Part shown: piece after piece, positions 11,503-56,766 of the stretch
Layout of the letters: the number at the start of each line of letters is the position of its first letter
Position numbering within the stretch: position 1 is the stretch's first letter
Origin: Thomasclavelia sp.
Lineage (GTDB): Bacteria > Bacillota_I > Bacilli_A > Erysipelotrichales > Coprobacillaceae
Length of the DNA: 64,000 nt
Assembly: GCA_028749475.1 (NCBI GenBank)
Contig: JAQVWN010000001.1
Span: forward strand, 1 to 64,000
Direction: 5' to 3'
Made by a program: the position numbers and the translations under genes
The notes under the pieces: model-generated
What the model was told of the DNA's origin: nothing
Seen by the model: the letters and a program-made list of their open reading frames with translations, nothing else
Databases searched by the model: none

Positions 11503-11580
11503 GATTAATTGAATAATATTTAATAAGTGATAAAATTTAAGTATAGATATTTACAGGGAAAAAATAAAAGGAGAAATAAA

Positions 11581-12762
11581 ATGAATAAACTAAAAAAAGT
11601 TTTTAGTCTATTTTTAGCAACCTTAATGGTAATGGGAATTATCATTCCAAGTGCTACTAAAGTAGATGCGATTGAAAAATATCCAATCGAGACAGCAGTT
11701 AATATGACCAGTTGTTCAGTAATACCAGTAGGGCCACAGGTTTCAACCACTCAAAACACAAATGGTGATTATGAATTAACTTATGATACAGCAGTTGATA
11801 AGTATAACCTTACTTATGATGCAGTTATGGATGTTACTCAAATGTGGGCTAAATATGACGAGTTAGTAAATCGAATGGGTGCATACTCTAATTATATTCA
11901 AATAGAAGGTGATTTTAATGGATCACTTTCATTTGACCCTAAACTTGATGTTGATGCATCAAAGTTTAGTGTTGAAGCTCTAAATCAAGCTTTTAAGTTA
12001 GCCAATCCAACAATGTGGCAAATGTATAATGTAACTAGTTGTAATTACGATAGTACTACTAGAACATTAGCCTTTACTGTTCATCTAAATGTTAGTAGTG
12101 TCGATTTTAAGACTTTAATTGATAGTGGTAAAAGAACAAACACGATGAGTGTTAGAATTCCTGAAGGGGCTTTAAGTCTTGCTAAAGAAGACATTACTGA
12201 TGGAATGAACATTACAGTAACTGGATCTAACTTTGGTGGAGATATGACCTTAACGGCTACTGGTATTTATTCTAGTGTTGGTTTAGTGGCTAATATTAAT
12301 GTAAAAAGCCCAATTGGAGTTAGTGATGTAGTTACAAAAGTAGATGTAGTAAATGTTCCTAATAGATATACAATTACTACTAATGTCACTAATGGTACTG
12401 TGGTAAGTAATAATAGTACTACTGATAAAAAAACAGTAGATGAAGGTAATAATTATATAGTTGAATATCAACCAAATGATGGTTATGTAATTGATACTAT
12501 CAAAGTAGATGGAGTTGTTGTAGATCCTTCGACATATGAAAAATCATATTCATTTACTAACATTACTACTAACCATGTAGTAGATGTTGTTTATAAGAAA
12601 AAAGAAGTTGCAGTAACACCTACTAATAGTTCAACTACTAAAAAAACATCTTCTGTTAAAACCGGTGATAATACTCAATATATTTTATATATTATGCTTT
12701 TAGCTGGTTCTCTAGTATGTTTTGAATTAATGAATTATTCTAGGAAAAAACATAATAAATAA
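11581..12762 (+). CDS. Cell-wall surface protein A with xTGDNT sorting signal
   Basis: 393 aa. Signal peptide at residues 1-30 (KKVFSLFLATLMVMGIIIPSATKVDA), then an unrecognised extracellular domain (about 35-240). A beta-rich repeat resembling the divergent InlB B-repeat follows (about 262-345; VTNGTVV...NDGYVIDTIKVDGV). Last come a Thr/Ser spacer and the C-terminus VKTGDNTQ, a hydrophobic stretch and YSRKKHNK. The tail has the layout of a sortase signal but lacks LPXTG. Start set at 11581 because AAAGGAG precedes it; the frame is open upstream without a ribosome site. Tandem paralogue of the next gene. Function unknown; adhesion is a guess. Confidence 0.72.
   Translation: MNKLKKVFSLFLATLMVMGIIIPSATKVDAIEKYPIETAVNMTSCSVIPVGPQVSTTQNTNGDYELTYDTAVDKYNLTYDAVMDVTQMWAKYDELVNRMGAYSNYIQIEGDFNGSLSFDPKLDVDASKFSVEALNQAFKLANPTMWQMYNVTSCNYDSTTRTLAFTVHLNVSSVDFKTLIDSGKRTNTMSVRIPEGALSLAKEDITDGMNITVTGSNFGGDMTLTATGIYSSVGLVANINVKSPIGVSDVVTKVDVVNVPNRYTITTNVTNGTVVSNNSTTDKKTVDEGNNYIVEYQPNDGYVIDTIKVDGVVVDPSTYEKSYSFTNITTNHVVDVVYKKKEVAVTPTNSSTTKKTSSVKTGDNTQYILYIMLLAGSLVCFELMNYSRKKHNK
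12133..12600 (+). repeat. Direct repeat copy 1 (shared with 13492-13959)
   Basis: This segment of surface protein A aligns without any gap to 13492-13959 of its neighbour (constant offset of 1359 bp) and is nearly identical at DNA level, including many synonymous positions. The flanking parts of the two genes are clearly more diverged. Confidence 0.85.
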
Positions 12763-12772
12763 TTATTAATAT

Positions 12773-12821
12773 AATCTCATATTTATTAGACTTACTAGTC
12801 TAATTATGTGAGATTTTTTAT
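12773..12821 (+). terminator. Intrinsic terminator after surface protein A
   Basis: AATCTCAT (12773-12780) pairs with GTGAGATT (12808-12815). The inner stem is TTAGAC/GTCTAA, and T6 follows. Confidence 0.8.
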
Positions 12822-12918
12822 TGTTGGTAATTTGGTTGAACCCCAAAATAAAAAATGTTAGACTATTATATGTAAATAGAGTGTGTGAGAGCTTATTTAT
12901 AGGAACGGATGGAGAAAA

Positions 12919-14136
12919 GTGAACAAATTAAAAAAGATTTTAACAGTAGTTTTTGCTATGGCAATGGCTTTTGGACTAACAGTTCAACCAACTGCAAAAG
13001 TTCAAGCATATAGTCTTACTGATTTACTTCCAATGGATGCAGAGGTTAATATGACTTCTTGTACAGTTGTACCAGTAGGAGATAATATTTCTACTACTAC
13101 AAATGCTGATGGAAATTATGAATTATCTTATGATACTAATATTGATAAGTATAATATTACTTACGATGCAGTTATGGATGTTACTCAAATGTGGGAACAA
13201 TATGATTCTATGGTGTCATTGGCTGAGTTTTTTAAACCAACAAGTTCAAACTATATTAATATAGCTGGTGATTTTAATGCTTCAATTTCATTTGATTCGA
13301 ATCTAGATATAGATTCATCAAAATTTAGTGTTGATACATTAAATGCTTCATTTAAAGCAGCTAATCCTACTATGTGGGAAATGTTTAATGTAACTACTTG
13401 TAATTATGATGATTCAACACGTACATTGTCATTTACTGTACATTTGGATGTTGCAAGTACTGATTTTAAACAATTAATTAACGATAATAAAAGAACAAAC
13501 ACAATGAGTGTTAGAATTCCTGAAGGAGCTTTAAGCATTGCTAAAGAAGATATTACTGATGGAATGAATATCACAGTAACTGGATCTAACTTTGGTGGAA
13601 ATATGACCTTAACTGCTACTGGTAAATATGAATATTTAGGAACAATTGCTAATATTGATGTAAAAAGTCCAATTGGAGTTAGTGATGTAGTTACCAAAGT
13701 AGATGTAGTTAATGTCCCTAACAGATATACAATTACAACTAATGTCACTAATGGTACTGTTGTTAGTAATAATAGTACTACTGATAAAAAGACAGTAGAT
13801 GAAGGTAATAATTATAAAATTGAATATCAACCAAATGATGGTTATGTAATTGATAGTGTAAAAGTAGATGGTGTTGAAGTTGATGCTTCAACTTATCAAA
13901 ACTCATATTCCTTTACTAATATAACTGCTAACCATATAGTTGACGTCGTATATAAAAAGCCAGAAGCAGTTACACCAGTAACTCCTTCAACAAATGCATC
14001 TAACACTACTTCTAGTACTTCTTCAACAGCTAAAACTGGTGATAATACTCAAATTTTATCTTATGTAGTCTTAGGAGCTGCAGCACTAGTTTGTTTAGGA
14101 TTGATGACTTACTCAAAGAAAAAACGTCATAATTAA
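12919..14136 (+). CDS. Cell-wall surface protein B with xTGDNT sorting signal
   Basis: 405 aa paralogue of the preceding gene with the same order of parts. A signal peptide ends near VQAYS, followed by an unknown domain containing VNMTSC, YDAVMDVTQMW and a long shared central block. Then come an InlB-like beta repeat, a Ser/Thr/Asn spacer and the tail AKTGDNTQ-hydrophobic-YSKKKRHN. It starts with GTG at 12919 behind GGAG (12911-12914), whereas paralogue A uses ATG. It has its own upstream terminator and downstream hairpin, so it is probably a separate transcript. An insertion of a few residues (SLAEFFKPTSSN region) distinguishes it from A. Function unknown. Confidence 0.72.
   Translation: MNKLKKILTVVFAMAMAFGLTVQPTAKVQAYSLTDLLPMDAEVNMTSCTVVPVGDNISTTTNADGNYELSYDTNIDKYNITYDAVMDVTQMWEQYDSMVSLAEFFKPTSSNYINIAGDFNASISFDSNLDIDSSKFSVDTLNASFKAANPTMWEMFNVTTCNYDDSTRTLSFTVHLDVASTDFKQLINDNKRTNTMSVRIPEGALSIAKEDITDGMNITVTGSNFGGNMTLTATGKYEYLGTIANIDVKSPIGVSDVVTKVDVVNVPNRYTITTNVTNGTVVSNNSTTDKKTVDEGNNYKIEYQPNDGYVIDSVKVDGVEVDASTYQNSYSFTNITANHIVDVVYKKPEAVTPVTPSTNASNTTSSTSSTAKTGDNTQILSYVVLGAAALVCLGLMTYSKKKRHN
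13492..13959 (+). repeat. Direct repeat copy 2 (shared with 12133-12600)
   Basis: Second copy of the gap-free homologous block. It covers the end of the unknown domain and the InlB-like repeat of surface protein B. Confidence 0.85.
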
Positions 14137-30536: not shown

Positions 30537-30576
30537 AAAAACCTCTTAAGTTGAGTAACTCAACTAAGAGGTTTTA
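30537..30576. terminator. Bidirectional terminator
   Basis: AAAACCTCTT-A-AGTTGAGT (30537-30555) pairs with ACTCAACT-A-AGAGGTTTT (30558-30575). It serves the GH1 gene (+) and the choice-of-anchor adhesin (-). Confidence 0.85.
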
Positions 30577-30586
30577 TTTATTAATT

Positions 30587-30790
30587 TTAATTTCTTTTTT
30601 TATTAAAACAAGTTACTGTTATAAAAGTAATAAGAGATAAACATAACATTGCCATTAATGGTAATAGGTTTGTATTATCACCAGTTTCTACAACAGAAGT
30701 TGCAGCTTTATTACTAGTAGAATTTGTTGTTGTAACTACTTCTGTTGAAGGTGTTACAACTACTGGAGTCTCAGGCTCTTCAGGAGTACT
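30587..30790 (-). pseudogene. Out-of-frame C-terminal part of the choice-of-anchor adhesin (sorting signal)
   Basis: In the frame next to that of the adhesin, the minus strand continues TPEEPETPVVVTPSTEVV, then a Thr/Ser/Asn spacer, VVETGDNTN, a hydrophobic segment (LLPLMAMLCLSLITFITVT) and CFNKKRN with TAA at 30587-30589. This is a complete xTGDNT cell-wall sorting signal with no start codon of its own. It is separated from its gene by one missing base in the first repeat unit near 30787. Confidence 0.85.
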
Positions 30791-31815
30791 GGAGTCTCAG
30801 GTTCTTCAGGAGTAACTGGAGTCTCAGGTTCTTCAGGAGTAACTGGAGTTTCAGTTTTACCAATTCCTGTATAATGCCATTCACCACCTGGATTAGTAAA
30901 GCTATTACAAATAACTTGTCCAGAGCTTGTTCCACTTACTGTTACATTAGCTTTAGGAGCAATAATAATTCCCATTGCTTCAGAAATGTTAATGTCTCCA
31001 TCATAATCTCCAAAATTGAAGACTACTTGAGCAGAATATTTGTTGACGTTATCATTTTGATGAGACGCACAAATTGTTTGTCCATTAACTTTAATATTGA
31101 ATCTTGTTAGATTCATTTTAGAAATATTAGTTGTATCGACATTTATAATAACTAATTGGTTTTTATTCATGATGATATTTGTTTGACCAATTTGTTGAGA
31201 TAAATTACCTGTAGCACCATTACTAGTTGTTGCGGATTGCACATATCCGTAATTATTAGTGTATGGTACAAGTGTTGTAGATACTACATCTGAATTGATG
31301 CTTGCGCAATCAATTTTTTCATTATTTTGATCAGTACGATCGATTGTAACTTGTGATTCTATTTGTTGTAATTCTTTAGCATATCCGCTTACATTACTTA
31401 AGATAGTTTCAACAGTAGGATTAATTTCTCCTTGTGAAACAGAAATTTTCTTTGCATCATAATTTAAAGAATTTATATTTACTTTCTCACCGAATTTAAT
31501 ACTAGTTTTTCCATGTGATTGGAAAGAAGTGACATCACTAGTAATATTGTTAATAATATTTTCTTTACCTTTTTGTCCAGCATATTTAGCACTGCTTCCA
31601 ATGGTTTGTCCACCACTATATAAATCAGTTCTAAGGTTGCTTTCGAAATCAGCTGCGATATTTGTAGTTTTTGAAACTACACCATAGTCTCCTACAGTAT
31701 TTTGAATATTTGTTAATGATGTGTTAGACCCAGTAGTGTTTTCTGCTTCGACTACAGAAATTGTTCCCAAACTCATCATTAGTGCCAAACCAATGGCAAA
31801 AAACGACTTTTTCAT
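30760..31815 (-). CDS. Choice-of-anchor A adhesin, frameshifted before its cell-wall anchor
   Basis: 351 aa as read. Signal peptide MKKSFFAIGLALMMSLGTISVVEA, then a choice-of-anchor A-type domain (about 30-325; starts NTVGDYGVVSKTTNIAADFESNLRTD, ends with GIIIAPKANVTVSGTSSGQVICNSF and the W-H-Y-T motif). A proline-rich repeat PVTPEEPET follows. One base is missing (GTTACT to GTACT on the coding strand, near 30787), so the frame ends PVLLKSLRLQ at 30760 instead of running into the sorting signal. As sequenced, the product would be secreted but not wall-anchored. AAGGAG precedes the ATG. Confidence 0.75.
   Translation of the reverse strand: MKKSFFAIGLALMMSLGTISVVEAENTTGSNTSLTNIQNTVGDYGVVSKTTNIAADFESNLRTDLYSGGQTIGSSAKYAGQKGKENIINNITSDVTSFQSHGKTSIKFGEKVNINSLNYDAKKISVSQGEINPTVETILSNVSGYAKELQQIESQVTIDRTDQNNEKIDCASINSDVVSTTLVPYTNNYGYVQSATTSNGATGNLSQQIGQTNIIMNKNQLVIINVDTTNISKMNLTRFNIKVNGQTICASHQNDNVNKYSAQVVFNFGDYDGDINISEAMGIIIAPKANVTVSGTSSGQVICNSFTNPGGEWHYTGIGKTETPVTPEEPETPVTPEEPETPVLLKSLRLQ
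30765..30844 (-). repeat. Tandem 27-bp repeat encoding PVTPEEPET (three units, one with a deletion)
   Basis: Units lie at 30765-30790 (26 bp, one base short), 30791-30817 and 30818-30844 (27 bp each). The short unit causes the frameshift of the adhesin. Confidence 0.9.
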
Positions 31816-31915
31816 TTAGTTGTATAACTCCTTACGTTATTCACAACCATAAACAACTTCAACAATTTACCATATTTACTATAGATGATGCAAGCATTTT
31901 TTGTTGAAAAAATCA

Positions 31916-31962
31916 ACAAAAAAAAGCGATAATGTTGAGGTGTCAACATGTAATCGCTTTAA
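31916..31962 (-). terminator. Terminator of the trp operon
   Basis: AAAGCGAT (31923-31930) pairs with ATCGCTTT (31953-31960); the inner stem is ATGTTGA/TCAACAT. On the minus strand the hairpin is followed by T8. Confidence 0.85.
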
Positions 31963-32025
31963 TATTAAATATAATCTTATTTTTAAAAAAGATCAGAGGA
32001 GTAAATTGAATTATGTGAAATTATG

Positions 32026-32793
32026 TTATAAAGCATCTGTTAATGATTTTACATAATCATATAAAGGTTTATCTGCTTCATTTCCGTATTCTTTGATAAT
32101 ATTTACAATTGCACTACCAACAATTACTCCATCACCAAATTTAGAAAAATGTTTAACTTGCTCAGGAGTATTAATACCAAATCCGATAGCTACTGGAGTG
32201 TCAGTAACTTTTTTAATTTCACCAACTATTTCTTCTAAATTGTTAGAAAAGCTAGATCTAGTTCCAGTAACTCCCATTGAAGATACTAAGTAAATAAATC
32301 CTTTAGCTTCTTTGGCAATCATCTTAACTCGATCTTTACTAGTAGGTGCAATCATACTAATTAATTGAACATTATATTTATCACTAACTTCTAAAACTTC
32401 ATTTTTTTCTTCATAAGGTAAATCTGGAAGTATAATTCCATCAATTCCAATTTCTTCACATTTAGAAAAGAATTTATCATATCCATAATGGAAACAAACA
32501 TTAAGATAAGTCATAAAACATAATGGAATGTTTGATACTTTTCTAATTTCTTTAACCAATTCAAAGATTTGATCAGTATCAATCTTATTAGCTAAAGCTC
32601 TAATGTTGGCTTCTTGAATAGTTGGACCTTCAGCAATTGGATCACTAAAAGGAATTCCAATTTCAATTAAACTAGCTCCCGCTTTTTCAAGTTGTAAAAC
32701 ATAATCAATAGTCTTTTCTTTAACTGGATCACCAGCAGTAAGAAAACCAATAAAAGCTTTTTTATTTTTAAATGTATCATCTATTCTAGTCAT
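32026..32793 (-). CDS. trpA: Tryptophan synthase alpha chain
   Basis: 255 aa TIM-barrel enzyme that cleaves indole-3-glycerol phosphate to indole. The catalytic Glu and Asp are in [19 protein letters not shown]. The phosphate loops VGFGI-like ([13 protein letters not shown]) and GVIVGSAIV are present. The frame is open further upstream, but GAGGAG and the ATG at 32793 give the start, overlapping trpB by 8 nt. Last gene of the trp operon. Confidence 0.95.
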
Positions 32794-34534
32794 GAATATC
32801 AACTCCTCTATATCTAGCAATTGCAGCCACGTCTTTATCACCACGACCACTTAAACAACAAATTATAATATCATCTTTACTCATTGTAGGTGCAATCTTC
32901 ATAAGATGAGCAACGGCATGAGCAGATTCAATAGCACAAATAATACCTTCTTCTTTCGCTATAAATTCAAAAGCATCAACTGCTTCATCATCAGTTACTG
33001 GGACATAACTAGCTCTTCCAGTATCATGAAGATAAGCATGTTCAGGACCAATACCAGGATAATCAAGCCCAGCACTAATTGAATAAACAGGAGCTATTTG
33101 TCCATATTTATCTTGGCAAAAGTAAGATTTCATACCATGGAATACTCCTTCACTACCAGTTGCAATAGTGGCAGCAGTAAAGGCTGTATCAACACCTTTA
33201 CCAGCAGCTTCACAACCAATAAGTTTAACATCTTTATCTTCAATAAAGTTATAAAACATTCCCATGGCATTACTTCCACCACCAACACAGGCCATGACAA
33301 CATTTGGTAATTTACCTTCTTTTTCTAGAATTTGAGCTCTAGCTTCTTTAGAAATAACACTTTGGAAATCTCTTACCATCATTGGAAAAGGATGAGGTCC
33401 CATGACAGAACCTAAGACATATAGAGTATCATCTACTCTTTTAGTCCATTCTCGCATTGTTTCATTAACGGCATCTTTTAAAGTCATGGTCCCAGAAGTA
33501 ACTGGATGAACTTTAGCTCCTAATAGTTCCATTCGGTAAACGTTTAAAGCTTGACGATCAGTATCTTCTTTTCCCATAAATATTTCACATTCTAAATCTA
33601 GAAGGGCAGCAGCGGTAGCTGTTGCAACACCATGTTGACCAGCTCCAGTTTCTGCAATGATTCTAGTTTTACCCATTCTTTTAGCAAGTAATGCTTGTCC
33701 TAAAACATTGTTTATTTTATGAGAACCGGTATGATTTAAATCTTCTCTTTTAAAGTAAATCTTAGCTCCACCAAGATCTCTAGTCATTTTTTTGGCAAAA
33801 TATAATCTAGAAGGTCTACCAGCATATTCATTTAATAAATCTTGTAATTCTTTATTGAAATCAGGATCATTTTTATATTTATCATATGCCTTTTCTACAT
33901 TATGAATCTCATTCATTAATGTTTCAGGAATATATTGACCCCCATGAATCCCATAACGTCCTTTACTCATTTTTACTCTCCTTATAATCTCTTCTACTTT
34001 TCTTTCATCTTTAAAACCATTTGTTTCAACACCACTAGATACATCAATTCCTATACAATTAACTTTCATCGCTTCATCAATATTATTAGTATTAATACCC
34101 CCAGCTAGAAAGAAAGGTTTATTGATGGATTTAATCTTAGTCCAGTCAAAACTATTTCCACTACCAGGTTGATTATTATCTAATAAGTAATAATCAACAT
34201 CATATTCTTTAAGATTATCGATATGCATTGCTTTAATGATTTTTACATTCAAAGGTTTTAACCTTTGAATATATTCATCATCTTCATCACCATGAAGTTG
34301 AATAATATCAATAATATGATTATTTACTAGTTTACTAATAAAACTAATATCTTCATTAATAAATACTCCAACTACTAAAATATCATTATTTAAGTTTTGT
34401 TTTAAAGTATAGGCTAAGTCATAGTTAATCTTTCTTTTAGTACCAGCAAATACAAAACCAACATAATCTGGCTGATATTTATTTACTATATCGATATCTT
34501 CAAGTCTTTTAAGCCCACATATCTTAATCTTCAT
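32786..34534 (-). CDS. trpFB: Fused phosphoribosylanthranilate isomerase - tryptophan synthase beta chain
   Basis: 582 aa. The TrpF part (about 1-188) has [11 protein letters not shown] with the catalytic Cys, IIQLHGDED and [15 protein letters not shown] with the catalytic Asp. The TrpB part (about 189-582) has HTGSHKINN with the PLP lysine, [17 protein letters not shown] and [10 protein letters not shown]. There is no stop between them: the frame runs [17 protein letters not shown]. TrpF is slightly short, as if only its stop was lost. It starts immediately after the trpC stop (TAAATG). Known TrpF fusions are mostly to TrpC; fusion to TrpB is less usual. An internal ribosome site is described separately. 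Confidence 0.93.
33968..33983 (-). promoter_or_regulatory. Internal ribosome site and ATG for free TrpB
   Basis: On the minus strand AAGGAGAGTAAAAATG occurs in frame at the TrpF/TrpB junction, with the ATG at 33970-33968. It would yield a 394-aa TrpB starting [10 protein letters not shown], the normal size of a stand-alone TrpB. Confidence 0.6.
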
Positions 34535-35314
34535 TTAATAACCTCTAAGATCCTTTAAGACCTTTTCTTTATCATCGGCTTTGACAATACTCTCACCAAT
34601 TAATACAGCATCTACATGATTATCTTCTAATACTTTAATATCATCATGAGTTTTAATTCCACTTTCACTAATAAAGATCGTATCATCATCAACCATATCT
34701 TTATATCTTATAGAATTATGAACATCAACACTAAAATCTTTTAAATTTCGATTATTAACTCCAATAATTCTTGCTCCAATTCTTTTGGCCATTAATACTT
34801 CATCTTTATCATGGGCTTCAACGACACAAGATAGCCCTAAACTATTTCCTAAATCAAAGAATCTTTTTAAAGTCTTTTCATCTAAGATAGCACAAATTAA
34901 TAGGATAGCTTTTGCACCTAATAACTTAGCTTCATAAATCATATACTCATCAATAATAAAATCTTTTCTAAGAGTTGGAATAGAAACTACATTATTAATT
35001 TCTTTTAAGTAATTATCATTTCCTAAAAAGAAATCGGGTTCTGTTAAAACTGAAATACAACTAGCACCTATTCTTTCATATTCTCTAGCAATATCTAAAT
35101 ACTTAAAATCTTTTACAATTAATCCTTTAGAAGGACTTGCTTTTTTAACTTCTAAGATAAAAGATATTTTATCTTTCTTTAAAGCTTTTTCAAAAGGATA
35201 ATCAAAAGTAATATCTAAATTATTAACTTCTTTAATTAATTCATCTAAAGGTTTATCCTCATATTTTCTTTTAACCCTTATTTTAGTTTTAGCAACTATA
35301 TCATCTAAAATCAT
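34535..35314 (-). CDS. trpC: Indole-3-glycerol phosphate synthase
   Basis: 259 aa TIM barrel. [14 protein letters not shown] carries the catalytic Glu/Lys and phosphate-contact residues. [42 protein letters not shown] and [12 protein letters not shown] are all family motifs. The start overlaps the trpD end by 4 nt (ATGA) and the stop abuts the trpFB start. It converts CdRP to indole-glycerol phosphate. Confidence 0.95.
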
Positions 35315-36321
35315 TCAGCATTACTTGCTTTAATAAAAGCTTGAAGCTTTTGATAAGCTTTTCCTTCATCAATAAGTTTAGCAGCTAAATCAATACCTTC
35401 TTTAATAGTATCTACTTTACCAGCCACATATAAACCAGCACCAGCATTCATTAGAACTGCATCTCTTTGAGGACCTTTTTTACCTTTTAGTATTTCAGTA
35501 GTAATATGAGCATTTTGTTGAGGAGTTCCTCCGACAAGATCTTCTTTTTTACAACGTTTAATACCGAAATCTTCTGGTTTGATTACATACTTATCATATT
35601 TACCATTCTTAACTTCACAAACAGTAGTAGGAGCACTACAAGATATTTCATCTAAACCATCTTGACCATAAACTACAACTGCACTTTTAACCCCTAAGTT
35701 ATTTAATACTCTAGCTAATGGTTCAACTAATGATTCATCATAAACACCCATTACTTGCATTTTAGCACCAGCTGGATTAGTTAGAGGCCCTAGAATATTA
35801 AAGATAGTTCTAATACCTAATGCTCTTCTAATTGGAGCTACATACTTCATCGCTATATGATAGTTTTGAGCAAATAAGAAACAAATATCTTCTTCATTTA
35901 AAATCTTTTTAGATACTTTTGGATCTACCAAGATATTAACTCCAAGAGCTTCCAAACAATCAGCAGCTCCTGATTTAGATGAAGCAGCTCTATTACCATG
36001 CTTAGCAACCTTAACCCCAGCTGAGGCAATTACGATTGAACTAGTAGTTGAAATATTGAAAGAGTTACTTCCATCACCACCAGTACCAACTATTTCTAAA
36101 ACATCTTCTTCATTTAAGAACTTAAGACAATGAGCCCGCATAGCGGCAGCACTTCCCGTTATTTCATCAATAGTTTCTCCTTTTATAGATAAAGCGGTAA
36201 GGTATGAAGCCATTTGAACATCACTAGCCTGTCCGGACATAATTTCATCGATACAATCATAAGCCTCTTTTTCAGTTAAATCTTCCTTCTTTGATAATTT
36301 AATAATCGCTTCTTTAATCAT
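35311..36321 (-). CDS. trpD: Anthranilate phosphoribosyltransferase
   Basis: 336 aa. The PRPP-binding glycine loop is [38 protein letters not shown] and [17 protein letters not shown] are further diagnostic motifs. Overlaps trpG by 8 nt and trpC by 4 nt. It couples anthranilate to PRPP. Confidence 0.96.
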
Positions 36322-36889
36322 TATTTTTTCCCCCTAAGAAATTATTCATTATTTTAAATCCTTCATCAGTTAGTATTGATTCCGGATGAAACTGTAAACC
36401 ATAAACTTCATAATCATCTAACTTAACCGCCATAACTTCATTATCATCACTTCTAGCAATTACTTTTAAATTACTAGGTAAAGTACTTTCATCTACTGCT
36501 AAGGAATGATAACGAGCTACCTTAGTATGTTTAGATACACCTTCAAATATTTTATCATCATTAATACTAATAATAGATGATTTACCATGCATTATCACTT
36601 TAGCATAAGTTATCTTAGCTCCCAAAGCTTCACAAATAGCTTGATGGCCTAAACAAACACCAAGAATTGGTTTTTTATCATAGAAGTATTTAACAACTTC
36701 TTCAATAATACCGGCTTCACTAGGTTTACCAGGACCTGGTGAAATAATAATATAATCAGGATCTAAATCCTTAATCTCTTCAATCGTTAATTCATCATTT
36801 CTAATAACTTTAATATCTTCATTAATTGAACCAATTAATTGATATAAGTTATAAGCAAAACTATCGTAGTTATCAATTAGTAATATCAT
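36314..36889 (-). CDS. trpG: Anthranilate synthase glutamine amidotransferase subunit
   Basis: 191 aa class I glutamine amidotransferase. The nucleophile Cys is in [16 protein letters not shown], the His/Glu pair in [12 protein letters not shown] and the N-terminal [13 protein letters not shown] is typical of TrpG/PabA. The start shares one base with the trpE stop (TAATG). It supplies ammonia to TrpE; possible dual use with folate synthesis cannot be excluded, as no pabB is seen. Confidence 0.95.
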
Positions 36890-38328
36890 TATAAATCACC
36901 TGCCTGATTAACAGCATTCACTACTGCCGCTGCTTTATTAATAGATTCTTGATATTCGTTTTCTGGAATTGAGTCGTAGACAATTCCACCACCAGAACGA
37001 ACATAGACTTTATCGTTTTGTTTGGATGCAAATCTAATACCAATACACATATCTAAATTTCCATTAAAGGCAATATAACCAATAGCTCCGCCATAATTAC
37101 CTCGTTTATTATCTTCTAGTTCATTGATGATTTGACAGGCCCTGATTTTTGGCGCACCACTTAGAGTACCGGCTGGAAGAACGGCATCAATAGCATCTAG
37201 AGCATCTTTACCATCTTGGATTTCACTTTTTACTGTCGATCCAATATGCATAATATGAGAAAACTTCAAGATATCATGAAACTTTTCAACTTTAACACTA
37301 TTGAATTTAGAAATCCGACCTAGATCATTTCTTCCTAAGTCTACTAACATATTATGTTCAGCTAATTCTTTTTCATCTTTAAGTAATCCCTCAATTAATT
37401 CTTGATCTTCTTGATCATTTTTTCCTCTTGGCCTTGAGCCAGCAAGAGGGAAGGTATATAAAGTTTTATCAGTTAACTTCACTAAAGTCTCTGGTGAAGC
37501 TCCTGCCATTTCAATGGTATTAGATGAAAAGTAAAACATATAAGGAGAAGGATTAGTAGTCCTTAGAATTCGATAAGTATCAAATAAGGATCCAGTTGCT
37601 TTAGCTTCAAAGCGGTTAGAAAGAACTACTTGGAAGATATCTCCTTCCTTAATATAATGTTTACCTTTTTCAACCATCTGACAAAACTCTTCTTTATTAA
37701 ATAAAGGAGTAAATTTTTCTTTGATATGTAAAGGTTCAATAATTGCTTTATCATCACTTTTAACGATTGCTTCTAATTTATCTAATTCTTTTAGACCTTC
37801 TTGATAGTTTAACTCTAAGTTATCAGTTTTAATATTTACTATTAAGATAATCTTTTGTTTGTAGTTATCAAAACAAACAATCTTATCAAAAAACATTAAA
37901 TCTAAATCATTAAAAGCATCTTTATTAGCAGCATCTAATTTTAATTTTGGTTCAGAATACTTGTAATAATCAAACCCAAAGTAACCAACTAAACCACCTG
38001 TAAAAGGAGGAAGTCCTTCTATTTTGGGAGAAGTATTATTTTTAAGTAATTCTCTTAAATAATCTTTAGGATGATCAATGTATTGTTCCTTACCATTTAT
38101 TTTTAAAACATTATTTAAACAAGTTATTTCAAGTTTTGGATCAAAACCAATAAATGAATAACGGCCCCAATTAGTAGCATCCTCATTAGATTCTAATAAA
38201 AAAGTATGAGAAGAAACTTTTTTAAGAACTCTAACTAATTCAACAGGAGTTGTAATATCACTCATTATTTCTTTAGTTATGGGAATTAAATCATAATTAC
38301 TATACTGTTTTAAGTCTTCAATATTCAT
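36889..38328 (-). CDS. trpE: Anthranilate synthase component I
   Basis: 479 aa chorismate-utilising enzyme. HTFLLESNEDATNWGRYSF contains the LLES element of the tryptophan feedback site. Catalytic-domain motifs are GDIFQVVLSNRF, GRNDLGRISKF, HIMHIGSTV and LPAGTLSGAPKIRA. The frame stays open into the T-box leader, but AAAGGAG precedes the ATG at 38328, and upstream translation would run through the terminator hairpin. First gene of trpEGDC(FB)A. Confidence 0.95.
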   Translation of the reverse strand: MNIEDLKQYSNYDLIPITKEIMSDITTPVELVRVLKKVSSHTFLLESNEDATNWGRYSFIGFDPKLEITCLNNVLKINGKEQYIDHPKDYLRELLKNNTSPKIEGLPPFTGGLVGYFGFDYYKYSEPKLKLDAANKDAFNDLDLMFFDKIVCFDNYKQKIILIVNIKTDNLELNYQEGLKELDKLEAIVKSDDKAIIEPLHIKEKFTPLFNKEEFCQMVEKGKHYIKEGDIFQVVLSNRFEAKATGSLFDTYRILRTTNPSPYMFYFSSNTIEMAGASPETLVKLTDKTLYTFPLAGSRPRGKNDQEDQELIEGLLKDEKELAEHNMLVDLGRNDLGRISKFNSVKVEKFHDILKFSHIMHIGSTVKSEIQDGKDALDAIDAVLPAGTLSGAPKIRACQIINELEDNKRGNYGGAIGYIAFNGNLDMCIGIRFASKQNDKVYVRSGGGIVYDSIPENEYQESINKAAAVVNAVNQAGDL

Positions 38329-38348
38329 CTTTATTCTCCTTTTAAATA

Positions 38349-38389
38349 ATAAAAAACCGTCCGACAGAAAATATCTGTCAAGGACGGTT
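38349..38389 (-). terminator. T-box-controlled terminator of the trp leader
   Basis: AACCGTCC (38355-38362) pairs with GGACGGTT (38382-38389); the inner stem is GACAGA/TCTGTC. On the minus strand T6 and an AT-rich tail follow. It competes with the antiterminator formed by the T-box bases. Confidence 0.9.
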
Positions 38390-38610
38390 GTATCCGCGGT
38401 GCCACCTTGTTTCATGATTATATAATCATGCACTTATCAGATGCTATCACATCTTTAGCTACTGACGTAAGCTTAACGTTAAGGAATACTCAACTTTTCT
38501 TCCTTACCCTCAGTGGTCCATTTAATATTTTGGGTTCTGCTTGTTTCCACCAGCCAAGCTCTCTATTAGGCCATCAATATTTTTATCTCCACCTCAACGG
38601 TTTATTTATA
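38349..38610 (-). ncRNA. Tryptophan-specific T-box riboswitch
   Basis: The minus strand contains the T-box core AAGGTGGCACCGCGG (38408-38394), the conserved Stem I elements (GAGAGCTTGGCTGGTGGAAA around 38562-38543, then CAAGCAGAACCC) and the specifier region AAATGGACCACTGAG with codon UGG at 38520-38518. Uncharged tRNA-Trp should pair with UGG and with the T-box bulge, stabilising the antiterminator and switching on trpE. Specifier choice is by position and context in Stem I and agrees with the operon. Confidence 0.93.
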
Positions 38611-38713: not shown

Positions 38714-40765
38714 TTAGTTATCTTTTTTTATACTTTTAACTGTAAGCCCTAAAACTAATAATGAAAGACTTCCTGAAATAATTAATAATTGAATATTAGT
38801 ATTATCACCAGTTTGAACTTGATTATCTACTGTAGCTTTGTTAGAACCATTAGATGATTCTGGTGTAGATACGATTGTGATTTCTTCAGTATCTTTAGGT
38901 TCGTCTTTAGGTTCATCTTTAGGCTCATCTTTAGGTTCATCCTTAGGATCGTCTGTAGGTTTTTCGACAGGCTTATTTCCACTAGGTTCATTTGGTTTCT
39001 TATTATTGATGATATCGATATTATCGTTATTATCAATTGTTAGTGAATAATTAATAGTTGTTGTAAATGAATCTAATTCACTATTATATATTTCTTTTGT
39101 TGTTTCATTTTTGATAGTTAAAGCATAAACTTTATCAGAAATTAAATATCCATTAGGAGCAGTAATTTCTTTTAAGTATAACGTACAACTATTATTCGTA
39201 GTTGGTAAATATGCTGTTAATTTATCATTAGCAGTTGAAAGAGTATATTTACCACCAGTAATAGTTGTAACAACATCTTCATCACAACTTTCAGTTGAAT
39301 AAATACCAAATGTAGCTCCTTCAATAGTTGTACCTTCAGCATTTACTTTATTGATGACAACATTATCATGATTAATTATAGTATTAGTTTTTTTAGTATT
39401 AGTAACATCTAAATTTTCTTCACCTTCAATTGTAATTGAATATTGAATTTCCTTATCACCAGTAGCACTAATAACAACAGGATAAGTATTATCAGTTTTA
39501 CTATATCCATTTGGCGCCTTAGTCTCTTTTAAATATAAAGTATTTTCTTTACCAGTTGCTGGTAAATAGTTAGCTAACGCTTCATCACTAGTACTAATAT
39601 TAAATGATTGAGTAGAATAATTACTAACAACATTATTTGCACTATCATATAATGTAAAACTAGCACCATATAAAGCATTACCTAATTGATCAACTTTATT
39701 AACTGTTACTGTGTCATGAAGGTAAGATGTAGTTCCACCAATTTTGTTTCCTTTATAAGGCCACATATGTCCTTCAGAATTAGTTACAACAGACTTAGCA
39801 ATAATACAACCATTGTAATTACCACCTGTAATTTCACAATCAGCATTAGGAGCTACTAAGTGTCCAGTATAAGCAACATTAGTTTTTACTGATGTAGCAT
39901 TTGGAAGAGCGTAAACAATTCCAGCCCCTGTTTCACTACTTTCAATTGAACCAATTTCTGAAGTTACTAATTGCTTATTAATTTCTTTTGTTTCAAATGT
40001 TCTTGGAATTGTAAATGAAGAAGCATTTGAATAAAGGATTACATCATTAACTAAACCACCATAAACATTTAATTCTTTAATGCCATTTATATTTGATATA
40101 TCAAAAGTATTTCCAGCATGAACCTTTAAAACACCAGTAGAACTATCATATTCATAACCATCATTTTCTAAAGTAGTTGATTTAGAAGCATCAATAGTTA
40201 TTTTAGTTGGATCATTTCCTAAAGAAGCAGCTTCTTTAGTTAAATCATTCATCTTATTAAAATCAACAAAATTATCGGTATATTTAACTCCATCTTCACG
40301 AGAAACAACAGTTTCGCCAGTTAAATAATACTTATTATTAATGTTATTAGTACCAGTATAATAATAAAGATCATCATTATAGACACTAATCGTATTTCCT
40401 TTTAATTTATTTCCTCCAACATATGAAGAATATTGATGGAGATAACCATTAATTGGACTAGGGGCAGAAAGACCACCTAAGTTTACAGCACAATCACCAC
40501 CAGTAATAATTGGCCCAACAACGTGACTACCAGTATAAGAATTAGAAACAAATACATTGTAGTTTGATAAAATGTATCTTAAATTATATTCTCCATTATG
40601 CTCTTTACCAGCAGCATCTTTGTAAGAAGTAAAAGTATCAGCAGTGATATTACTATCATCTGCTTTAACACGCTCACTTCCACTTACCATTGTTAAGAAA
40701 CATACAAAAACAACTAGCGATAATACAAAAGTCTTTTTTAATAATGCTTTTAAATTTACTATCAT
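38714..40765 (-). CDS. Choice-of-anchor A adhesin with SpaA-type repeats and xTGDNT sorting signal
   Basis: 683 aa. A signal peptide (about 1-36) precedes a choice-of-anchor A domain (about 55-345; LRYILSNYNVFVSNSYTGSHVVGP, GHLVAPNADCEITGGNYNGCI, GHMWPYKG). Two SpaA/prealbumin-like pilin domains follow, beginning VTVNKVDQLGNALYGASFTLYD and VVINKVNAEGTTIEGATFGIY. These domains often carry Lys-Asn isopeptide bonds. Then come a PKDE repeat stalk and the C-terminus NQVQTGDNTN-hydrophobic-VKSIKKDN. The architecture is that of a wall-anchored, pilus-like adhesin. Single-gene transcript with GAGGAG before the ATG. Confidence 0.82.
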   Translation of the reverse strand: MIVNLKALLKKTFVLSLVVFVCFLTMVSGSERVKADDSNITADTFTSYKDAAGKEHNGEYNLRYILSNYNVFVSNSYTGSHVVGPIITGGDCAVNLGGLSAPSPINGYLHQYSSYVGGNKLKGNTISVYNDDLYYYTGTNNINNKYYLTGETVVSREDGVKYTDNFVDFNKMNDLTKEAASLGNDPTKITIDASKSTTLENDGYEYDSSTGVLKVHAGNTFDISNINGIKELNVYGGLVNDVILYSNASSFTIPRTFETKEINKQLVTSEIGSIESSETGAGIVYALPNATSVKTNVAYTGHLVAPNADCEITGGNYNGCIIAKSVVTNSEGHMWPYKGNKIGGTTSYLHDTVTVNKVDQLGNALYGASFTLYDSANNVVSNYSTQSFNISTSDEALANYLPATGKENTLYLKETKAPNGYSKTDNTYPVVISATGDKEIQYSITIEGEENLDVTNTKKTNTIINHDNVVINKVNAEGTTIEGATFGIYSTESCDEDVVTTITGGKYTLSTANDKLTAYLPTTNNSCTLYLKEITAPNGYLISDKVYALTIKNETTKEIYNSELDSFTTTINYSLTIDNNDNIDIINNKKPNEPSGNKPVEKPTDDPKDEPKDEPKDEPKDEPKDTEEITIVSTPESSNGSNKATVDNQVQTGDNTNIQLLIISGSLSLLVLGLTVKSIKKDN
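38892..38960 (-). repeat. 12-bp tandem repeat encoding PKDE
   Basis: Five to six imperfect 12-bp units (TCTTTAGGTTCA type on the plus strand) encode a charged proline stalk just ahead of the sorting signal. Confidence 0.85.
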
Positions 40766-56491: not shown

Positions 56492-56568
<77 letters not shown>

Positions 56569-56597
56569 TTATTTTACTTGCAATATACCAATAATAT

Positions 56598-56674
<77 letters not shown>

Positions 56675-56690
56675 TATTATTTCTTTTATT

Positions 56691-56766
56691 GGGGCCTTAG
56701 CTCAGCTGGGAGAGCACCTGCCTTGCACGCAGGGGGTCAGCGGTTCGATCCCGCTAGGCTCCACCA
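56691..56766 (+). tRNA. tRNA-Ala (anticodon TGC)
   Basis: 76 nt: acceptor GGGGCCT/AGGCTCC (one G-T pair), anticodon stem CTGCC with loop TTGCACG, T-arm GCGGT-type and encoded CCA. It lies 16 bp after the second tRNA-Ile; no rRNA gene is nearby. Confidence 0.97.

What the first reader, a model, noticed from the sequence alone, without database searches (positions are those of the whole stretch)
30587..31815. Adhesin detached from its sorting signal by a one-base loss in a tandem repeat
The first of three 27-bp PVTPEEPET repeats is 26 bp long. The frame then ends 30 bp later, while the adjacent frame encodes an intact xTGDNT anchor. Slippage or recombination between repeats could restore or remove the base, switching the adhesin between wall-bound and secreted forms. 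The lost base is in a TT pair, so a sequencing error must also be considered.
Basis: partly seen in the sequence, partly recalled or inferred. Interest (0 to 1): 0.6.

Follow-up and report, generated by a model that had tools for sequence, protein, structure and literature searches.

The report
Surface adhesin gene broken before anchor
A gene for a bacterial surface protein has lost one base in a short repeat, so as sequenced its cell-wall attachment tail is out of frame and the protein would be secreted; this looks like an ordinary chance mutation (or a base-calling error), not a built-in on/off switch.

Summary
On the minus strand, a 351-codon gene with a signal peptide (31815-30760) carries three full PVTPEEPET units plus a partial one. 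The last full unit in reading direction (first in + coordinates) is 26 bp instead of 27, and the frame stops about 25 bp later. The neighbouring frame (30796-30587) encodes a sorting signal: TGDNT, a hydrophobic stretch and basic residues. This is not chance: a profile built only from the genome's seven other TGDNT tails finds it at E = 1.2e-7. The genome holds a single sortase, of class B. A strong terminator follows the anchor-frame stop, and the nearest relative of the adhesin domain has the same kind of tail. So this is an anchored surface protein whose sequenced allele is frameshifted.

The proposed switch is not supported. The unit is 9 codons, so gain or loss of full units keeps the frame. 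The overlap has no simple repeat, long homopolymer or slippery heptamer, and the two other unit differences are silent. No other clear frameshift appeared in 304 kb, which argues mildly for a real mutation over an error. No second strain was available, so reversibility and fixation are untested. Loss of a wall anchor by frameshift or nonsense mutation is already known.

The parts
31828..31833 (-). Shine-Dalgarno AAGGAG, 12 nt before the ATG
   Evidence: read directly from the sequence
30760..31815 (-). frameshifted adhesin ORF, 351 aa, with signal peptide (MKKSFFAIGLALMMSLGTISVVEA) and adhesive-type domain; ends at a premature TAG
30850..31233 (-). C-terminal conserved domain (residues ~195-322, ending IIAPKANVTVSGTSSG...GGEWHYTG), related to the pAdhesive_15 / choice-of-anchor A ice-binding-like fold through relatives in the same family
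   Evidence: phmmer to G008 2.7e-14 and to G061 4.3e-7 (three-sequence set); G061 is PF20597 at 5e-30
30762..30854 (-). tandem array of a 27-bp unit (PVTPEEPET), 3.5 copies
   Evidence: units
30773..30798 (-). third unit in reading direction, 26 bp; the length difference lies around 30787/30788
30760..30762 (-). premature stop TAG of the adhesin frame
30587..30796 (-). adjacent open frame (69 aa + stop): rest of the repeat/linker and sorting signal VVETGDNT + hydrophobic stretch + NKKRN
30538..30575 (.). hairpin followed by a T-run on both strands: bidirectional terminator directly after the anchor-frame stop
   Evidence: -21.1 and -22.6 kcal/mol; z -5.8 and -7.2; no shuffle of 200 as good
31905..31975 (-). 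terminator hairpin between trpA and the adhesin gene, so the adhesin is probably transcribed on its own
   Evidence: -17.4 kcal/mol, z -7.3

Best explanation
The locus is the gene of a class-B-sortase-anchored surface protein: signal peptide, an ice-binding-like adhesive domain, a Pro/Glu/Thr repeat spacer and an xTGDNT sorting signal. Its sequenced allele carries a recent, sporadic one-base loss in the third repeat unit. Shown: both frames, the short unit, the anchor signal, the single class B sortase and the terminator after the anchor stop. Inferred: that the base is missing in the living strain, that the truncated protein (351 aa, ending in about 8 out-of-frame residues) is exported and released instead of wall-bound, and that the loss is a chance mutation with no programmed reversal.
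For: Anchor tail found independently of itself, E = 1.2e-7. Eight TGDNT sites in the genome, all in sorting-signal-like C-termini, seven in frame with a long protein. One sortase in the genome, class B, 174 bits against TIGR03064. Terminator right after the anchor-frame stop. The relative in G008 ends VVKTGDNT...KKKKKSTND. Anchor-only hexamer score +33 in its frame; the other two forward frames score -245 and -301. The two other unit differences are silent in the full-length frame (GAA/GAG), so the array was under coding constraint until recently. No other split gene in 261 genes or 136 adjacent ORF pairs over 304 kb. The event is at a 2-base run while 662 runs of 6-8 bases show no damage. In C. 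difficile, removing SrtB sends its adhesin substrates to the supernatant (PMC4591827).
Against: Draft assembly (43 contigs), platform unknown, no reads, no second strain. A single event near a repeat could still be an assembly error. Expression and export were not tested. The G008 tail lies beyond a 1727-base scaffold gap. The hexamer score also favours one antisense frame (+27), so that measure alone is weak.
Confidence: 0.55

Rival explanations
1. Sequencing or assembly error: the true gene is in frame and the protein is an ordinary anchored adhesin.
For: Draft genome of 43 contigs; tandem repeats are known trouble spots for assemblers (PMC6868369); both frames are otherwise perfectly preserved, as an error would leave them.
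Against: A misassembled repeat usually gains or loses whole units, not one base (inference); indel errors of 454/Ion Torrent type concentrate in homopolymers above 4-5 bases (PMC6868369), but this is a 2-base run and 662 coding runs of 6-8 bases show no damage; no other frameshift in 304 kb.
Confidence: 0.32
2. Reversible phase variation: recombination or slippage in the array removes or restores the short unit and toggles the protein between wall-bound and secreted.
For: Nearly identical 27-bp units could recombine; loss or replacement of the short unit would change frame; the anchor frame is undamaged.
Against: Unit length is a multiple of three, so the common event (gain or loss of a full unit) is frame-neutral; only about 3.5 copies; no homopolymer of 5 or more in the overlap; known repeat switches use units not divisible by three (PMC3894217) or homopolymers (PMC2831843); the array covers 7.6% of the gene, so a random indel landing there is not remarkable.
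Confidence: 0.06
3. The short form is the normal product (a stably secreted protein) and the anchor tail is a relic.
For: Signal peptide and domain are complete upstream of the break.
Against: 69 stop-free codons with a well conserved signal and a terminator placed after the anchor stop argue that the break is recent; the G008 relative is anchored.
Confidence: 0.05
4. Programmed recoding (-1 ribosomal frameshifting or transcriptional slippage) joins the two frames.
For: The anchor frame is the -1 frame, and the two frames overlap for about 36 bases.
Against: No X XXY YYZ heptamer and no homopolymer of 5 or more in the overlap.
Confidence: 0.02

Closest known systems
Listeria monocytogenes InlA truncated by premature stops
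   Same: A wall-anchored adhesin/invasin loses its C-terminal anchor by a point or frameshift mutation and is reported truncated and secreted (Nightingale et al. 2005, title cited in PMC10299213).
   Different: InlA is an LPXTG/sortase A protein (own knowledge) and its known reversible frameshift is a 5' poly(A) tract (PMC2831843), not a 3' 27-bp repeat.
Cutibacterium acnes DsA1 (PA-25957/PPA2127)
   Same: Signal peptide, C-terminal Pro/Thr repeats of variable number, then an anchor motif that some strains lack; described as both surface-associated and secreted (PMC5527093; PMC3224659).
   Different: Unrelated protein; its frameshift signature is a 5' cytosine tract; LPXTG motif.
Clostridioides difficile SrtB substrates CD2831, CD3246, CbpA
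   Same: Single class B sortase acting on (S/P)PXTG or NVQTG tails such as SPKTGDST (PMC4155245); adhesins appear in the supernatant when not anchored (PMC4591827).
   Different: Release there is by the ZmpI protease under c-di-GMP control, not by a mutation.
Streptococcus gallolyticus Pil1 GCAGA repeat switch
   Same: Repeat-based frame change controlling surface protein display (PMC3894217).
   Different: Five-base unit, so adding or losing one unit shifts the frame; acts in a leader peptide; reversibility shown by experiment.

Membership tests
Sortase-anchored (class B target) surface protein | N-terminal signal peptide | tested here: met
   Basic start, hydrophobic core and VEA cut site read from the translation; no predictor was run.
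Sortase-anchored (class B target) surface protein | C-terminal xTG motif, hydrophobic stretch, basic tail | tested here: met
   In the adjacent frame: VVETGDNT, LLPLMAMLCLSLITFITVTCF, NKKRN. Below the curated cut-off of the general LPXTG model (13.1 against 15.9 bits), as is the in-frame paralogue tested in the same call (14.5).
Sortase-anchored (class B target) surface protein | signal in frame with the rest of the protein | tested here: not met
   One-base break; adhesin frame ends at 30760. As sequenced the product is therefore not an anchored protein.
Sortase-anchored (class B target) surface protein | a matching sortase in the genome | tested here: met
   One sortase, class B equivalog TIGR03064 at 174 bits. 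That it acts on TGDNT is inferred from its being the only one.
pAdhesive_15 (PF20597) / choice-of-anchor A (TIGR04215) | match to the family model over its cut-off | tested here: not met
   No hit in Pfam or NCBIfam. Linked only through G061, a clear member (5e-30), and G008. The neighbour at 38714-40765 is a clear member.
Phase-variable contingency locus | repeat unit whose gain or loss shifts the frame | tested here: not met
   27-bp unit, 9 codons; only the single short unit departs from this.
Phase-variable contingency locus | both states present in a clonal population, reversible | not testable with these tools
   No reads; no other genome of the genus held.
Programmed -1 frameshifting | slippery heptamer in the overlap | tested here: not met
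   None found.

The most novel reading that the evidence does not exclude
A long in-frame repeat with one odd-length unit acts as a low-rate, recombination-driven release switch for a sortase-B adhesin: loss or conversion of the odd unit returns the protein to the wall.
Probability: 0.05. Interest if true: 0.5.

Novelty: new member of a known kind. Interest (0 to 1): 0.2.

Why it matters
If the base is truly missing in the strain, it is one more case of a surface protein turned into a soluble one by a single mutation, in a bacterium that relies on one class B sortase with a TGDNT-type signal. It also shows that a gene caller would file this protein as a short secreted protein of unknown function and miss that it belongs to the sortase targets. 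If it were a real switch it would be a repeat design not described in the papers read here.

Tried and rejected
Searches for relatives: genome contigs and viral contigs with the adhesin gave nothing, as did plasmids and phages. The genome family (43 genomes) gave two distant relatives only. Structure prediction without an alignment failed (mean pLDDT 34.6), so no fold search was run. Translational recoding was rejected for lack of a slippery site. A thioredoxin-like frame without a usual start codon (L099:17727-18152) was checked as a second frameshift and judged a lipoprotein gene with an odd start. Searches failed on coordinates or frame and on a term length; the needed ones were repeated in corrected form.

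Full report
What is there. The minus-strand ORF 31815-30760 encodes 351 aa with a Shine-Dalgarno AAGGAG at 31828-31833 and a typical signal peptide. Near its end lies a 27-bp tandem array, 30762-30854, 3.5 copies. The units in reading direction are 27, 27 and 26 bp plus a partial one. After the short unit the frame stops at TAG 30760-30762.

The adjacent frame. From 30796 to the stop at 30587-30589 the -1 frame is open for 69 codons: it continues the repeat (STPEEPETPVV), a Ser/Thr/Val linker, then SVVETGDNTNLLPLMAMLCLSLITFITVTCFNKKRN. The pattern search found eight TGDNT-coding sites in the 1.84-Mb genome and none for the reversed control. All eight are C-terminal sorting signals; the other seven are in frame with long proteins (some of these were seen only within 3-kb loci, open at their upstream end). 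An HMM built from those seven tails alone found the out-of-frame tail at E = 1.2e-7 among 1444 six-frame segments.

The machinery. The genome has a single sortase by Pfam, which is a class B sortase by NCBIfam (174 bits against TIGR03064, cut-off 153.75). One in-frame target has a weak match to the sortase B target model. This parallels C. difficile, where a single SrtB acts on (S/P)PXTG tails, one of them SPKTGDST, with NVQTG proposed for CbpA (PMC4155245).

Gene borders. A strong hairpin with a T-run on both strands sits at 30538-30575, just after the anchor-frame stop, so the gene's natural end is the anchor frame and not the premature stop. Another terminator at 31905-31975 separates the gene from trpA. 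The simple terminator scan did not list either, probably because of its limits on stem and loop.

What the protein is. Direct Pfam and NCBIfam scans give nothing above cut-off. Within its family the domain (residues about 195-325) matches a protein of genome G008 (33% identity, 1.4e-10) and one of G061 (4.6e-4). The G061 protein is a clear pAdhesive_15 member with SpaA and Cna_B domains, so an ice-binding-like adhesive fold is a reasonable inference, not a demonstrated membership. The G008 gene ends, after a scaffold gap, in VVKTGDNT plus a hydrophobic and basic tail. The neighbour at 38714-40765 is a clear pAdhesive_15/choice_anch_A + SpaA adhesin with an in-frame TGDNT tail.

Real loss or error. 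No same-genus genome is held, so strains could not be compared. Over 304 kb of this genome, hexamer scoring found no other orphan coding piece that looks like a split gene; the others are short genes or are cut at stretch ends. None of 136 neighbouring same-strand ORF pairs shows a coding-like extension of 12 codons or more. The sampled coding sequence holds 662 homopolymer runs of 6-8 bases, where indel errors would be expected first, yet the only frameshift is at a 2-base run. This favours a real mutation, modestly. The scan cannot see every split gene, and the run counts come from ORFs that are open by definition.

Switch or accident. The unit is 27 bp, and the differences between full units other than the gap are silent Glu codons, as expected of an array kept in frame by selection. 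Gain or loss of a full unit leaves the frame as it is. Only an event acting on the single short unit changes it. Demonstrated repeat switches behave differently: GCAGA in S. gallolyticus (PMC3894217), poly(A) in inlA (PMC2831843). The array is 7.6% of the gene, so a random indel falling in it needs no special cause. There is no slippery heptamer or long homopolymer for recoding.

Verdict. An ordinary frameshifted allele (0.55) or an error (0.32) of a sortase-B-anchored adhesin. If real, the product should be exported and released; the precedents are truncated, secreted InlA (title cited in PMC10299213) and the anchor-variable DsA1 of C. acnes (PMC5527093). The switch idea stays at about 0.05.

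Noticed in passing
window 32026-38433 and 38714-40765: A trp operon with a TrpF-TrpB fusion (32786-34534) and a T-box leader (38377-38606, 107.9 bits) is flanked on the same strand by two adhesin genes, the broken one and a pAdhesive_15/SpaA one; none of 80 related trp loci shows either adhesin.
   Followed up: partly
window 11527-14136: Two tandem paralogous secreted proteins (411 and 405 aa), both with in-frame TGDNT tails; no Pfam match for the one scanned.
   Followed up: no
window 38891-38961: The neighbouring adhesin has a 12-bp repeat (KDEP), 5.9 copies, also a multiple of three, shortly before its anchor and in frame.
   Followed up: partly
L003:1456-2238 (G000:C2): The only sortase of the genome is class B, while all eight targets use xTGDNT without a Leu-Pro, so the motif of this lineage differs from NPQTN and LPXTG.
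   Followed up: partly
L099:17727-18152: Thioredoxin-like lipoprotein frame without an ATG/GTG/TTG start at the expected place.
   Followed up: partly
window 56492-56763: Three tRNA genes in a row, the first two with equal scores (68.8 bits) and a shared translated stretch, likely a duplication.
   Followed up: no
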